A DNA stretch of 64,000 nt from Brachybacterium vulturis. GTDB lineage: Bacteria; Actinomycetota; Actinomycetes; Actinomycetales; Dermabacteraceae. The notes below the pieces were generated by a model. It worked only from the letters and a program-made list of their open reading frames with translations, ran no database searches and had not been told where the DNA came from. Below are positions 14,591 through 63,768 of this stretch, piece after piece; position 1 is the first letter of the stretch; each line of letters starts with the position of its first letter. The stretch covers positions 2,232,001-2,296,000 of the forward strand of contig NZ_CP023563.1 of assembly GCF_002407185.1 (NCBI RefSeq). The letters run 5' to 3'. A program made the position numbers and the translations under genes.

Positions 14591-14697
14591 GCGGTGCGAG
14601 CCCCGCGCGGGCCGACCGGACGGTCGCGGAGCGCTGGCGGTGTCGGGCGCAGGCTCCTACGGTGGGGGCATCAGGCATCATCACGGAAGGAGTCATG

Positions 14698-16569
14698 ATG
14701 ACCACGTCACTGCACGACGGCCTCGACCTCGAACAGGTCTCCGAGCTGGCAGCCCAGCTGCGGGTGGACTCGATCCGCTCGTCGACCAGCGCGGGCTCCG
14801 GGCACCCCACCTCCAGCCTCTCCGCCGCAGACCTGCTGGCCACCCTGATGGCGCGCCACCTGCGCTACGACTGGGACGAGCCCGAGGCACCCGGCAATGA
14901 CCACCTGGTCTTCTCCAAGGGGCATGCCTCGCCGCTGCTGTACTCCGTCTTCCGCGCCGCCGGCGTGGTCTCCGAGCAGGAGCTGATGGAGGGCTACCGC
15001 CGCTTCGACCAGCGACTCGAGGGGCATCCCACCCCGGTGCTGCCCTGGGTCGACGTCGCCACCGGCTCGCTCGGTCAGGGCCTTCCCGACGGGGTCGGCA
15101 TCGCGCTCGCCGGCAAGTACCTGGAGAAGTCCCCGTACCGGGTCTGGGTCCTCACCGGGGACAGCGAGCTCGCGGAGGGATCGATGTGGGAGGCCCTCGC
15201 CACCGCCTCGCACTACCAGCTCACGAACCTGGTCACCCTGGTGGACGTGAACCGGCTGGGACAGCGGGGCGAGACCGCGCTGGGCTGGGACATGGACACC
15301 TACGCCGCCCGGGTCGAGGCCTTCGGCGCCCGGGCCGTGGTCATCGACGGCCACGACCTGGACGAGATCGACGAGGCGCTGGCGCTGGCCGACGGCGAGC
15401 TGGACCGGCCCCTGGTGATCCTCGCCCGCACCCTCAAGGGCAAGGGCATCCCCGGCGTCGAGAACGAATCCGGCTGGCACGGCAAGCCGATGCCCGAGGA
15501 CAAGGCCGAGGAGGCCATCGATGCCCTCGGCGGCGAGCGCTCCCTGCAGGTGCGCGGACCGAAGCCGCCCACGCTCGAGCCGGCCCCGCACTCCCCGCGC
15601 GGCGCGGTCGAGCTGCCCGTCTTCACGCCCGGCGAGGAGGTCGCGACCCGCAAGGCCTATGGCCCGGCGCTCACCGCCCTCGCGGAGGTCGACCCGCGGG
15701 TGGTCGCCCTGGACGGAGAGGTCTCGAACTCCACCGGCGTCGCCGACTTCGTCGAGGCGCACCCGGAGCGCTTCTTCGAGATGTTCATCGCCGAGCAGCA
15801 GATGGTCGCCGCCGCCACCGGTCTCTCCTCCCGCGGCTACCTGGCCTTTGCCTCGACGTTCGCGGCCTTCCTCACCCGCGCCGCCGACTTCATCCGGATG
15901 GCTCCGGTCTCCCGGGTCGATCTGCGGCTGGTCGGCTCCCATGCGGGCGTCGAGATCGGCGCCGACGGGCCCTCCCAGATGGGGCTCGAGGACCTCGCGA
16001 TGATCGCCGCCACCCAGGGCTCGACCGTGCTCTACCCCAGCGATGCGACCTCGACCGCGGCGCTGGTGGCGGAGATGGCCGAGCTGTCCGGTGTGAGCTA
16101 CCTGCGGACCACCCGAGGGGGCTACCCGGTCCTCTACGGCTCCGAGGAGTCCTTCCCCGTGGGCGGGTCGAAGACCCTGCGCAGCTCCGAGGACGATGCC
16201 GTCACCCTCATCGGGGCCGGCGTGACCCTCCACGAGGCGCTCTCCGCCGCGGAGGCCCTGGCCGAGGACGGTGTGAACGCCCGGGTGATCGACGCCTATT
16301 CGATCAAGCCGCTCGACGGCGCGGGCATCCGTGAAGCCGTCGCGGCGACCGCTGGCCGGGTCGTGGTGGCCGAGGACCACCATGCCGAGGGCGGGCTGGG
16401 CGCCGCTGTGCTCGCGGCGCTGGCCTCCGAACCGGTCACGGACCTGCACCTGCGGCATCTGGCCGTCGACGGCGTGCCGGGATCCGGCACCACCGAGCAG
16501 CTGCTCGCCTGGGCCGGGATCGACGCCGCCCACATCGCCGCGGCGGCACGCGCCGCGCTGGAGGGCTGA
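14698..16569 (+). CDS. tkt-like: Transketolase (animal-type arrangement)
   Basis: A 623-residue thiamin-diphosphate enzyme of the pentose phosphate pathway, which moves two-carbon units between sugar phosphates. Domains in order: TPP-binding (about 1-270) with SGHPTSSLSAADLL, the TPP/Mg motif GDSELAEGSMWEAL and DVNRLGQRGETA; pyrimidine-binding (about 310-480) with FEMFIAEQQMVAAATGLSSR containing the catalytic Glu; and a C-terminal domain. The GDSELAEGSxWEA/DVNRLGQ wording resembles the shorter animal TKT rather than the E. coli form of about 660 residues. GGAAGGAG lies 5 nt before the ATG at 14698; the ATG at 14695 is an alternative. It is convergent with the Fic gene. Confidence 0.9.
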   Translation: MTTSLHDGLDLEQVSELAAQLRVDSIRSSTSAGSGHPTSSLSAADLLATLMARHLRYDWDEPEAPGNDHLVFSKGHASPLLYSVFRAAGVVSEQELMEGYRRFDQRLEGHPTPVLPWVDVATGSLGQGLPDGVGIALAGKYLEKSPYRVWVLTGDSELAEGSMWEALATASHYQLTNLVTLVDVNRLGQRGETALGWDMDTYAARVEAFGARAVVIDGHDLDEIDEALALADGELDRPLVILARTLKGKGIPGVENESGWHGKPMPEDKAEEAIDALGGERSLQVRGPKPPTLEPAPHSPRGAVELPVFTPGEEVATRKAYGPALTALAEVDPRVVALDGEVSNSTGVADFVEAHPERFFEMFIAEQQMVAAATGLSSRGYLAFASTFAAFLTRAADFIRMAPVSRVDLRLVGSHAGVEIGADGPSQMGLEDLAMIAATQGSTVLYPSDATSTAALVAEMAELSGVSYLRTTRGGYPVLYGSEESFPVGGSKTLRSSEDDAVTLIGAGVTLHEALSAAEALAEDGVNARVIDAYSIKPLDGAGIREAVAATAGRVVVAEDHHAEGGLGAAVLAALASEPVTDLHLRHLAVDGVPGSGTTEQLLAWAGIDAAHIAAAARAALEG

Positions 16570-16581
16570 GCCGCTGCCCCG

Positions 16582-16602
16582 GCGCGGGCGGTCAGCCCGC
16601 GC
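16582..16602. terminator. Likely bidirectional terminator between transketolase and fic
   Basis: Inverted repeat GCGCGGGC (16582-16589), loop GGTCA, GCCCGCGC (16595-16602), lying between two convergent genes and overlapping the Fic stop codon. There is no U-tract, which is common in high-GC actinobacteria. Confidence 0.4.
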
Positions 16603-17809
16603 GGCGGACCTCGGCGGCGTAGGCGTCCAGGAGGCCGAGGATCCCGGTGTGCTGCCAGACGCGGTTCCGCGAGCGGCCTGTCGCCTCCTGCAGGATGCCG
16701 GACTCGGTCAGCTGGGCGAGAGCGCGCTGGGCCGTCATCGCCGGCACCTCCAGCGTGCGCTGGAGATGCGCGGCGTTGACGATCGGCTGGCCGATCAGCA
16801 GAGGCAGCACAGACCATGCGAGAGCATGCCGACGCACCCCGGACAGCCGCTCCCGGTCCCTCTCGAGCTGCTCGGCGAGATCATCGACCAGCCGGCTGCC
16901 TGTGGTCGCGGCATACCGTGCGGCCCGGGCGAACTCCTCCACGATCGGGCGGGCGTCCCCCGCGCGGAAGGCGGTCAGCGCTGCGGTGTATGCCTCGAGG
17001 TCCGTCAGCAGGCCGGCGGAGACCGGGGCAGTGGTGGTCAGCAGGCCCTTGCCGCTCAGCAGCGCGTGCACCAGTGCGCGGCCGGTACGACCGTTGCCGT
17101 CGGCGAAGGGGTGGATGGTCTCGAACTGGGCATGGGCGAGCGCCGCGTGGACGAGGACGGGCAGGTCGTCCCGGGCGAGGAACGTGAGCAGGTCGTCCAT
17201 GGCGGGGAGCACGTCCTCGGCCTCGGGGGCGATGTGGACGGCGCCGAGGGGGCTCAGTCCGCTGCGGCCCACCCACACCAGCTGTCGGCGCAGCTGGCCC
17301 GCGTCCTCTGCACCGGCAAGCAGCTCGGCGTGCATCGCGAGGATCGCCTCGAGATCGAGGTCCGCGGCCAGGCGCAGCGCCGCCTCCATCGTGCGGACGT
17401 TGGCGACGACGGCGCGGGCATTGCCGCTGCGCGATTCGTCGAGCTCGGCGAGGGCGAGCTGTCGGGCGCCGACGGTGAGGTCCTCGATCTGCGAGGAGGA
17501 GGCGGATTCGGTGCGCAGCAGCACTGCGCTCATCGGGCCGAGCGCAGGGTTGTCGGCACCCAGGCGGGCCGCGGCGTGGGCGTCGAACGCCGCCAGCACG
17601 GTCTCCGCATCGGCCACGTCGGCCGCCAGTTCCCCGGGCAGTGCGAACTCGGAGGCGCCGAGCGCGGCGGGGAGCGTCGTCTCGTAGGTGCCGGTCCCCC
17701 GGGAGCGGGCGGATCGGGAGGCGAGGCCGTCGTCGGCGACGGTCCAGTGCCCCGTCCGGTGCCCGACGGGGGACACCGCCAGCGGTCGTCGTGCCGGAAG
17801 TGTTCCCAT
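16592..17809 (-). CDS. Fic family AMPylase-like protein with C-terminal winged helix
   Basis: A 405-residue protein. The catalytic Fic motif HPFADGNGR is at residues 233-241 (consensus HPFxxGNGR). An N-terminal inhibitory-helix candidate SSSQIEDL (residues 104-111) fits the (S/T)xxxE(G/N) motif except for Asp after Glu. This suggests a self-inhibited class of Fic protein. Fic enzymes transfer AMP from ATP to protein targets. Residues about 330-395 look like a winged helix (PIVNAAHLQRTLEVP, RALAQLTESGILQEATGR), a combination seen in Fic proteins annotated as regulators. A 13-bp perfect palindrome overlaps its promoter, so DNA-binding autoregulation is likely. The start at 17809 sits seven bases after TACACT. 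Confidence 0.9.
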   Translation of the reverse strand: MGTLPARRPLAVSPVGHRTGHWTVADDGLASRSARSRGTGTYETTLPAALGASEFALPGELAADVADAETVLAAFDAHAAARLGADNPALGPMSAVLLRTESASSSQIEDLTVGARQLALAELDESRSGNARAVVANVRTMEAALRLAADLDLEAILAMHAELLAGAEDAGQLRRQLVWVGRSGLSPLGAVHIAPEAEDVLPAMDDLLTFLARDDLPVLVHAALAHAQFETIHPFADGNGRTGRALVHALLSGKGLLTTTAPVSAGLLTDLEAYTAALTAFRAGDARPIVEEFARAARYAATTGSRLVDDLAEQLERDRERLSGVRRHALAWSVLPLLIGQPIVNAAHLQRTLEVPAMTAQRALAQLTESGILQEATGRSRNRVWQHTGILGLLDAYAAEVRRAG

Positions 17810-17815
17810 GCCGCC

Positions 17816-17850
17816 AGTGTAGTAACACTTTGTTCAGAAAGTGTTACTAC
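17816..17850 (-). promoter_or_regulatory. Leaderless promoter and palindromic operator of fic
   Basis: The minus-strand -10 TACACT (17816-17821) lies six bases before the ATG at 17809. It overlaps the palindrome GTAGTAACACTTT (17819-17831), spacer GTTCAG, AAAGTGTTACTAC (17838-17850), whose arms match perfectly over 13 bp. The element is strikingly AT-rich compared with its surroundings. The position suits a repressor that blocks RNA polymerase; the Fic protein's own winged helix is the obvious candidate. It also lies after the metG stop, so some terminator function cannot be excluded. Confidence 0.75.
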
Positions 17851-17885
17851 GGCCGGGGAGGAGTCACAATTTCGGCTCGAGCGGC

Positions 17886-19685
17886 TCAGCCCTCGGCGGC
17901 CGCCTCCAGGCGCTCGAGCTCCTGCTCGGCGGTCTTGGGGTCGAGCTTGACGAAGATGCCGGTGGGCTTGGTGACCGTCTGGCCCACCCCCACCGGGTGG
18001 TGCGCCCAGGCCGGGACGTCGGTGTAGTCACCGGTGATGATCGGGTAGCCGGGACCGCCGTCGAGATCCTCGACCTCCACGATCTGCGGCATCGGCGCGA
18101 TCTGGCGGCTCCCGCCCAGCGCCTTCTCGACCTCGTTGGCCGAGTGCGGCAGGAACGGAGACATCATCGTGTTGAGGTCCGTGACGGCCTGCGCGAGCAC
18201 GTGGAGCACGGTGAGCAGGCGCGGACGCTGCTCCTCGGCCTTCATCTTGAAGGGTTCGGTGCGGGAGACGTAGGCGTTCGCCTCGCCCACCAGGCGCATG
18301 ATCTCGGTGATCGCGGCCCGCTGACGATGCGCCTCGATGAGGCCGCCGACGGTCGAGAAGCCCTCACGGAGCTGATCCAGCAGTGCCCGATCGATCTCTT
18401 CGAGCTCGCCCGCCGCCGGGATCTCCCCGACGTTCTTCGCGATCATGGCGGCGGTGCGGTTGACCAGGTTGCCCCAGCCGGCGACCAGCTCGTTGTTGGT
18501 GCGGGAGACGAAATCCGTCCAGGTGAAATCCGAATCCTGGTTCTCGGGCCCCGCGGCGGAGATGAAGTAGCGCAGCGCGTCGGGCTGGTAGCGCTCGAGC
18601 ACGTCGCGCACGTAGATCACCACCCCCTTGGAGGAGGAGAACTTCTTGCCCTCCATGGTGAGGAACTCGCTGGAGACGACCTCGGTGGGCAGCGTCAGCT
18701 CGCCGAAGCGGCCGGGTTCGCCGCCCTTGTCGCCCTGACCGTTCTGCGCGATCATCTCCGCCGGCCAGATCTGCGAGTGGAAGACGATGTTGTCCTTGCC
18801 CATGAAGTAGTAGGCGAGGGTCTCCGGATCGTTCCACCACGTCCGCCACGCCTCCGGATCGCCGGAGCGGCGGGCCCACTCGATGGAGGCGGAGAGGTAG
18901 CCGATCACCGCGTCGAACCAGACGTACAGGCGCTTGTTCGGCTGATCCTCCCAGCCCGGCACCGGGATGCCCCAGTCGATGTCACGGGACATCGCGCGGG
19001 GCTTGATGTCGCCCAGGATGTTCTGGCTGAAGCGGATCACATTGGGGCGCCACAGCCCGGTCGCCTCCCGCTCGTCGAGCCAGCGGCCCAGCTCTCCGGC
19101 CAGGGCCGGCAGATCCAGGAACCAGTGCGAGGTCTCGATGAACTCCGGGGTCTCGCCGTTGATCCGCGAGACCGGATCGATCAGGTCCGTGGGGTCCAGC
19201 TGGTTGCCGCAGCTGTCGCACTGGTCGCCGCGCGCACCGCCGGCGCCGCAGATCGGACAGGTGCCCTCGATGTAACGGTCCGGCAGGGTGCGACCGGTCG
19301 ACGGGGAGATCGCCCCGGAGGTCGTCTCCTCCACCATGTAGCCGTTGTCCCGCACGGTGACGAACATGTCCTGCACCACCTGGTAGTGGTTGCGCGTGGT
19401 GGTGCGGGTGAACAGGTCGTACGAGAGACCCAGCGCGACCAGGTCCTCGACGATGAGGCGGTTGTTGCGGTCGGCGAGCTCGCGGGCGGAGATGCCCTCG
19501 GCGTCGGCGGCCACCAGGATCGGGGTGCCGTGCTCATCGGTGCCGGAGACCATGAGCACATCGTTCCCCGCCATGCGCATGTAGCGGGAGAAGACATCGG
19601 AGGGGACGCCGAAGCCGGCGACATGACCGATATGGCGGGGACCATTGGCATACGGCCAGGCGACCGCGGACAGGACTGTGCTCAT
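17886..19685 (-). CDS. metG: Methionyl-tRNA synthetase
   Basis: A 599-residue class I aminoacyl-tRNA synthetase that charges tRNA-Met. The HIGH motif is in [20 protein letters not shown] near residue 12 and the KMSKS equivalent is KKFSSSKGV near residue 345. A zinc knuckle in the connective domain ([20 protein letters not shown], about residues 141-160) has two CxxC pairs, matching the zinc-containing MetRS type. The anticodon-binding helical domain follows (about 400-540). The C-terminal EMAP-like dimerisation domain is absent. The ATG at 19685 follows TAGAAT by eight bases. Confidence 0.97.
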
Positions 19686-41287: not shown

Positions 41288-41323
41288 AGGAGCCCGGTGC
41301 GCATCGCTGCGCACCGGGCTCCT
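41288..41323. terminator. Strong bidirectional terminator between holA and rpsT
   Basis: Perfect 16-bp stem AGGAGCCCGGTGCGCA (41288-41303) and TGCGCACCGGGCTCCT (41308-41323) with a TCGC loop, lying between two convergent genes. No U-tract follows in either direction. Confidence 0.8.
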
Positions 41324-62830: not shown

Positions 62831-62891
62831 GGGGGTCCCTCGGGAGGTGCGGTGGTCTGATGAGTGGGTGATGCACTGGGGCCCGAACAGC

Positions 62892-62923
62892 GCAGGGCGG
62901 CGCCGAGGATGGCGCCGCCCTGC
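62892..62923 (-). terminator. Stem-loop between flp and the TadE gene (attenuator candidate)
   Basis: Perfect 13-bp arms GCAGGGCGGCGCC (62892-62904) and GGCGCCGCCCTGC (62911-62923) with a 6-nt loop. It may let some transcripts stop after the abundant pilin or protect its mRNA. Confidence 0.7.
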
Positions 62924-62961
62924 GGAGTGACCAGGGGAAGCGTGGCCGGTGCGGGGTGTTG

Positions 62962-63735: not shown

Positions 63736-63768
63736 GGCCCCGTCGAGACCAGGGGTCTCGACGGGGCC
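63736..63768 (-). terminator. Terminator of the flavodoxin-like gene
   Basis: Perfect 15-bp stem GGCCCCGTCGAGACC (63736-63750) and GGTCTCGACGGGGCC (63754-63768) with a 3-nt loop, 21 nt after the stop codon of the minus-strand gene. Confidence 0.8.

What the first reader, a model, noticed from the sequence alone, without database searches (positions are those of the whole stretch)
17816..17850. Fic gene with a perfect 13-bp operator over a leaderless promoter
The 32-bp AT-rich palindrome overlaps the -10 TACACT, which sits six bases from the fic start codon. The Fic protein itself ends in a winged-helix-like domain. This predicts an autoregulated AMPylase, in which the enzyme, perhaps in a particular modified state, controls its own transcription. 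Many Fic proteins are class II with an inhibitory helix (SSQIED here), but few have visible operators.
Basis: partly seen in the sequence, partly recalled or inferred. Interest (0 to 1): 0.6.

Follow-up and report, generated by a model that had tools for sequence, protein, structure and literature searches.

The report
Toxin-like enzyme gene with four-part self-operator
A bacterial Fic enzyme gene carries, over its promoter and first codons, a four-part DNA address whose sequence tracks the enzyme's own DNA-binding domain across many bacteria, so the enzyme very probably switches its own gene off.

Summary
The palindrome is real: GTAGTAACACTTT-6 nt-AAAGTGTTACTAC, 17819-17850, 13/13 arms, with TACACT six bases before the fic start. 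Even its half-site (1 mismatch allowed) occurs nowhere else in the 3.8-Mb genome. In 71 of 101 related fic loci (CDS control 1/101), and 40 of 70 further loci (control 0/70), a comparable palindrome sits at fic, usually with a different sequence. Comparing each locus's half-site with its own flanks, against half-sites swapped from distant loci, reveals two more half-sites. The operator is four 12-bp half-sites (< > < >, gaps 11-6-11), 76 bp, with the outermost one over the start codon; in the window 17797-17872. The third site recurred at the same offset in independent loci; the fourth is weaker there. Operator sequence tracks the protein's winged-helix domain (partial r 0.31) rather than its Fic domain (0.05). 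So autoregulation by the Fic protein's own domain is well supported, though no binding has been shown. Autorepression has a precedent, CccR of Yersinia. What I did not find described is the conserved four-site, leaderless, start-codon-overlapping operator. The protein is a class II Fic and matches PADLOC's SoFic anti-phage model. "Few have visible operators" is wrong: most relatives do.

The parts
16592..17809 (-). fic gene, 405 aa, class II Fic protein with C-terminal winged helix
   Evidence: ORF; PF02661 E 1.3e-19; PADLOC SoFic E 5e-65; AF2 model pLDDT 88, best solved match 7cb8
17819..17850 (.). core palindrome, 13-nt perfect arms, 6-nt spacer (the finding)
   Evidence: conserved in genus
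17861..17872 (+). outer half-site R0, GAGTCACAATTT, 9/12 match to R
   Evidence: fixed mirror position of the third site
17838..17849 (-). half-site L, TAGTAACACTTT (12-nt frame)
17820..17831 (+). half-site R, TAGTAACACTTT (12-nt frame)
17797..17808 (-). outer half-site 3, TGGGAACACTTC, 9/12 match to L, over codons 1-5 of fic
17816..17821 (-). -10 element TACACT, 6 nt before ATG (leaderless promoter, inferred)
   Evidence: TANNNT 5-7 nt before an in-frame start at dyad +24 to +26 in 42 of 80 loci, exactly 6 nt in 35
16646..16798 (-). codons 338-388, winged helix-turn-helix domain
16703..16741 (-). codons 357-369, predicted recognition helix
   Evidence: strongest residue-base covariation includes 357, 359, 362
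17480..17497 (-). codons 105-110 SSQIED, inhibitory helix motif of class II Fic
   Evidence: S105, S106 and E109 invariant
17078..17113 (-). codons 233-244 HPFADGNGRTGR, catalytic Fic motif
   Evidence: H233-F235, D237-R241, G243 and R244 invariant
17886..19685 (-). metG-like gene, upstream neighbour in the same orientation
   Evidence: ORF; identity from the sequence; metG lies near fic only in the genus
14662..16569 (+). transketolase-like gene, convergent; ends 22 bp from the fic stop, leaving no room for a downstream antitoxin gene
   Evidence: identity from the sequence

Best explanation
The site is the operator by which this class II Fic protein represses its own gene. The protein's C-terminal winged helix binds 12-bp half-sites. 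Two half-sites make the visible core palindrome; a degenerate one lies on each outer side, giving four sites in the order < > < > over 76 bp (17797-17872). Together they cover the -35 region, the -10 element TACACT, the start point and codons 1-5, so bound protein would block RNA polymerase on a leaderless promoter. Shown: the sequence anatomy, its conservation, the fixed spacings, the covariation with the winged helix and the uniqueness of the site in the genome. Inferred: binding, repression, leaderless transcription, and that two Fic dimers sit side by side, each spanning an outward-facing pair (R0-L and R-3, 23 bp apart) with the 5-6 bp central gap as the junction (that last point about 50%). 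The gene is probably a self-limiting, toxin-like AMPylase of the SoFic anti-phage type, kept low until repression is relieved.
For: Palindromes at fic: 71/101 loci at p<=0.01 versus 1/101 in matched coding stretches; 40/70 versus 0/70 in further loci. Same place but different sequence between clades. Operator distance correlates with winged-helix distance given Fic-domain distance (partial r 0.31, 0/500 permutations); the reverse is 0.05. Among the strongest residue-base pairs by APC score are three in the predicted recognition helix: 359-base 6, 357-base 3, 362-base 8. Third site: own half-site beats swapped ones in 47/53 loci, 0/2000 permutations, z 9.0 at +26 in even-centred loci; fourth site z 7.6 at the mirror position -38. 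In 32 further loci the third site is again at +26 (z 6.7; 19 even-centred). Where a match of >=8/12 exists, R-3 spacing is 23 bp in 38/45 loci and R0-L spacing 23 bp in 24/37, while the central gap is 6 (61) or 5 (17). Half-site unique in the genome. Precedent: CccR, a class II Fic with a C-terminal HTH, represses its own promoter through a palindrome (PMC9755527).
Against: No binding or expression data. Related loci are not independent, and partial Mantel tests can be over-confident. The 20 protein columns with the highest mean covariation are not significantly enriched in the winged helix (5/20, p 0.13). The fourth site is weak in the validation set (z 2.7 and not the top offset in either parity class). 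About 30-40% of loci show no clear palindrome in the region searched. In the window itself the outer sites match only 9/12 each (chance about 4e-4 to 1e-3 each).
Confidence: 0.82

Rival explanations
1. The palindrome is the operator of a different regulator that happens to control fic.
For: A palindrome alone does not name its protein. No binding data exist.
Against: Only one copy, even of the half-site, in the genome. Divergence of the site tracks the winged helix encoded by the same gene. Sites travel with fic across genera whatever the neighbour: 62 of 71 operator loci lack metG.
Confidence: 0.08
2. It is a transcription terminator or mRNA hairpin of the upstream metG gene.
For: Lies between metG and fic on the same strand; a 13-bp stem with a 6-nt loop could fold in read-through RNA.
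Against: No T run and no terminator-like site found. The stem is A+T-rich, the element is found where metG is absent, and the outer half-sites extend into fic codons.
Confidence: 0.03
3. The outer half-sites are an artefact: the third only reflects conserved N-terminal coding, and only the core palindrome matters.
For: The third site overlaps codons 1-5; in the window it matches 9/12.
Against: The swap control keeps the coding sequence and changes only the half-site compared. The mirror site R0 is in no shared coding context, and the spacing is 23 bp on both sides.
Confidence: 0.12
4. The dimer binds the inward-facing core pair (L-R) and the outer half-sites are secondary contacts, rather than each dimer spanning an outward-facing pair. 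(This rivals only the dimer arrangement, not autoregulation.)
For: The core pair is the best conserved; 17-18 bp is a usual spacing for winged-helix dimers (established knowledge).
Against: The central gap varies (5 or 6) while both outer spacings hold at 23 bp. In some loci the outward-facing pair is itself a near-perfect palindrome (L011, L118, L121, L122). CccR recognition helices are 70 angstrom apart (PMC9755527), nearer 23 bp (78 angstrom) than 17-18 bp (about 60), though not decisive.
Confidence: 0.45

Closest known systems
CccR of Yersinia pseudotuberculosis (PMC9755527)
   Same: Class II Fic protein with C-terminal HTH; dimer; represses its own promoter through inverted repeats near -35 and -10, shown by lacZ fusion, EMSA, footprint and ITC.
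   Different: Its operator is reported as AGATAATCAT-N26-ATGATAATCT (46 nt, two half-sites); here there are four half-sites with gaps 11-6-11, the last over the start codon of a leaderless gene. CccR is a T6SS effector with other targets; nothing here suggests secretion.
SoFic / EcSofic anti-phage AMPylases (PADLOC SoFic; PMC12249575)
   Same: Domain layout; strong match to the PADLOC SoFic profile; fold match to Shewanella SoFic 3zcn.
   Different: About 20% identity; far below the NCBIfam SoFic cut-off (58 versus 550 bits). EcSofic is held by a small downstream antitoxin, AS1; here 22 bp separate fic from a convergent gene, so none fits downstream. A term search of that paper's text found no DNA-binding, HTH or transcription terms.
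7cb8, Fic-domain protein of Mycobacterium marinum with CDP
   Same: Closest solved relative by sequence and fold.
   Different: No publication on its regulation was found in the papers searched.
CbFic2 of Coxiella burnetii (PMC10628234)
   Same: Class II Fic with winged helix; binds DNA with nanomolar affinity and DNA stimulates its activity.
   Different: Random DNA was used; no operator was identified.

Membership tests
Class II Fic AMPylase | Fic motif HPFx[D/E]GN[G/K]RxxR | tested here: met
   HPFADGNGRTGR, residues 233-244; core invariant in 52 homologues
Class II Fic AMPylase | Inhibitory motif (S/T)xxxE(G/N) N-terminal to the Fic motif | tested here: met
   SSQIED, residues 105-110, with D in place of the usual G/N; S105, S106, E109 invariant
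Class II Fic AMPylase | AMP transfer to a target | not testable with these tools
   needs assay
Autoregulating Fic-HTH protein (CccR-like) | C-terminal winged helix | tested here: met
   AF2 helices 346-353, 357-369 and strands; match to SoFic and CbFic2 structures that contain it; PF11972 below its cut-off
Autoregulating Fic-HTH protein (CccR-like) | Inverted repeats over its own promoter | tested here: met
Autoregulating Fic-HTH protein (CccR-like) | Binding and repression of the own promoter | not testable with these tools
   only covariation evidence
Autoregulating Fic-HTH protein (CccR-like) | Two half-sites separated by 26 bp | tested here: not met
   four half-sites, gaps 11-6-11: same working principle, different geometry
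SoFic anti-phage defence | Match to the PADLOC SoFic profile over most of its length | tested here: met
   PDLC03963 E 5.3e-65, profile 23-358 of 361
SoFic anti-phage defence | NCBIfam SoFic equivalog cut-off | tested here: not met
   58 bits versus cut-off 550; a relative, not the SoFic equivalog
SoFic anti-phage defence | AS1-type small antitoxin gene downstream (known for EcSofic) | tested here: not met
   22 bp between fic stop and the end of the convergent gene
SoFic anti-phage defence | Protection against phage | not testable with these tools
   needs plaque assays

The most novel reading that the evidence does not exclude
The four-site operator is a holding platform as well as a silencer: two Fic dimers bound side by side on their own gene are kept in a defined catalytic state, and whatever frees them (phage DNA, a nucleotide or target cue) both releases the enzyme and switches on its synthesis. 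ATP-induced movement of the C-terminal domain in EcSofic (PMC12249575) and DNA-stimulated activity of CbFic2 (PMC10628234) make such coupling conceivable; nothing here tests it.
Probability: 0.15. Interest if true: 0.75.

Novelty: new variant of a known kind. Interest (0 to 1): 0.6.

Why it matters
Class II Fic proteins are said to make up about 80% of Fic proteins, yet almost nothing is known of how their activity is held down (PMC9755527). This points to a general answer in Actinobacteria: dedicated, private, fast-diverging operators read by the enzyme's own winged helix, laid over leaderless promoters and the start codon. It gives more than a hundred natural protein-operator pairs, a direct route to a recognition code, and orthogonal repressors; and it makes testable whether anti-phage AMPylases are induced by loss of autorepression.

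Tried and rejected
Terminator or hairpin of metG: no T run, and the element is present without metG. A regulon: no second site in the genome. A -35/-10 sigma-70 pair: none passed the scan; only the -10 to start spacing is conserved. Ranking protein columns by mean covariation did not single out the winged helix (p 0.13); the Mantel contrast did. A sliding-window version of the Mantel test peaked at residues 81-90 as well, in a gappy stretch, and was not relied on. Loci whose best palindrome was the outward-facing pair were set aside by hand in the discovery swap test but not in the validation. Phage records hold only three weak partial relatives.

Full report
What was checked. The stated feature is present. 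The arms 17819-17831 and 17838-17850 match 13/13 with 6 nt between. TACACT lies at 17816-17821 on the minus strand, six bases before the ATG of a 405-codon gene read leftwards. Perfect inverted repeats of this size are uncommon but not unheard of in the window: four in 64 kb, against 0-2 in each of eight order-1 resamples. Significance therefore has to come from conservation.

The gene. The protein has the Fic motif HPFADGNGRTGR and the inhibitory motif SSQIED; their key residues are invariant in 52 homologues. It matches Pfam Fic and the PADLOC SoFic profile (E 5e-65), but it is far below the NCBIfam SoFic equivalog cut-off. An AlphaFold model built on the 52-sequence alignment (mean pLDDT 88) shows a C-terminal winged helix, with the predicted recognition helix at residues 357-369. 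Its best solved matches are the M. marinum Fic protein 7cb8 and Shewanella SoFic. Fic lies downstream of a metG-like gene on the same strand and faces a transketolase-like gene 22 bp away, so there is no room for a downstream antitoxin gene of the AS1 kind described for EcSofic.

Conservation in close relatives. Of 38 genomes of the genus, 28 have some match; about 16 carry a clear orthologue. In about fourteen of them TAGTAACACTT(T)-n-AAAGTGTTACTA stands at the same place, mostly followed by TACACT or a close variant and, six to seven bases later, ATG or GTG. The spacer between the arms varies; the arms are largely kept. In the window's own genome even the 13-mer half-site occurs only here.

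Conservation in distant relatives. In 101 fic loci (the window's own, relatives from genome contigs, and orthologues and paralogues from the genus) the best palindrome near the start reached p<=0.01 against order-1 resamples in 71, versus 1 in matched coding stretches. In 70 loci taken later, from a class-wide search with a mycobacterial query and regions fetched from its hits, it was 40 versus 0. The sequences differ between clades (TTACCAACACTTA, ATAGCATCACTTA, TTAGCTACAGATA, CTTATGAAAGGTTA and so on) while length and position are kept. Of the 71 operator loci, 62 have no metG within reach, so the element belongs to fic.

Who reads it. For 60 non-redundant loci, distance between operators correlates with distance between winged helices (r 0.42), also after correction for Fic-domain distance (0.31, 0 of 500 permutations). 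The Fic domain, corrected for the winged helix, gives 0.05. In a residue-by-base analysis the highest corrected scores include 359-base 6, 357-base 3 and 362-base 8, all in the first half of the predicted recognition helix. A cruder ranking of whole columns was not significantly enriched there. Shared ancestry weakens all such tests, but the contrast between the two domains is hard to explain if another protein reads the site.

Four half-sites. Reading the aligned loci showed a further copy of the left arm at the start codon. To test this, each locus's half-site was compared with every position around its own dyad, and the score was set against half-sites taken from distant loci. Besides the two arms, two positions stood out: +26 in the same sense as the left arm, and its mirror, -38, in the opposite sense. 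In the 36 even-centred loci the z-values were 9.0 and 7.6; own exceeded swapped at the third site in 47 of 53 loci, 0 of 2000 permutations. In 32 further loci not close to the discovery set, with none set aside by hand, +26 again ranked first after the arm itself in the 19 even-centred loci (z 6.7). The -38 signal was weaker (z 2.7) and not the best secondary offset. Among 78 core-centred loci, where a match of at least 8/12 exists, the R-3 distance is 23 bp in 38 of 45 and the R0-L distance 23 bp in 24 of 37; the central gap is 6 in 61 loci and 5 in 17. In the window R0 is 17861-17872 and the third site 17797-17808, each 9/12.

Promoter. TANNNT stands 5-7 bases (35 times exactly 6) before an in-frame start codon 24-26 bases from the dyad in 42 of 80 loci; the reversed hexamer gave 14. 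This fits a leaderless promoter whose -10 shares bases with half-site R and whose start codon sits in half-site 3. No -35 consensus was found.

Mechanism. The best-supported account is that the Fic protein's winged helix occupies the four sites and blocks its own promoter. The two outer spacings are fixed while the central gap varies, which suggests that each dimer spans an outward-facing pair and two dimers meet at the core; the reported 70-angstrom separation of recognition helices in CccR (PMC9755527) is compatible with 23 bp. This last step is inference, at about even odds. What relieves repression, and what the enzyme modifies, are not known.

Comparison with the known. Autorepression by a class II Fic-HTH protein through a palindrome has been shown for CccR of Yersinia, so the principle is known. 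The geometry here differs (four half-sites, 11-6-11, instead of two half-sites 26 bp apart). In the papers searched I found no description of this operator family; that library covers open-access papers only. A small look at 15 plasmid-borne Fic genes, 14 of them from other phyla, shows repeated inverted half-sites in several (Agrobacterium, Azospirillum, Bradyrhizobium, Sulfitobacter); only some reach p<=0.01, and this is a lead, not a result.

Noticed in passing
L086, L092, L098, L100 (Brachybacterium-like genomes G003, G028, G037, G020): Four of about sixteen fic orthologues in the genus are split into two frames, with the operator still recognisable upstream; frequent inactivation of a costly gene, or assembly error.
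   Followed up: no
L002, own genome C1:1072189-1073391: A second SoFic-type paralogue (39% identical) in the same genome has its own, different palindrome (ATCCAACTTTAA-gcc-TTAAAGTTGGAT) at its start: two apparently insulated self-operators in one cell.
   Followed up: partly
L191-L205 (plasmids of other phyla): Fic-HTH genes of Agrobacterium, Azospirillum, Bradyrhizobium, Sulfitobacter and Enterobacter also carry repeated inverted half-sites upstream, sometimes over the start codon, with other spacings.
   Followed up: partly
window 41288-41323, 62891-62924, 63736-63768: Three other perfect inverted repeats with arms of 14-16 nt in the window.
   Followed up: no
L024, L046, L011: Some loci show three or four near-perfect alternating half-sites in a row upstream of fic, as if the array were extended or shifted.
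   Followed up: partly
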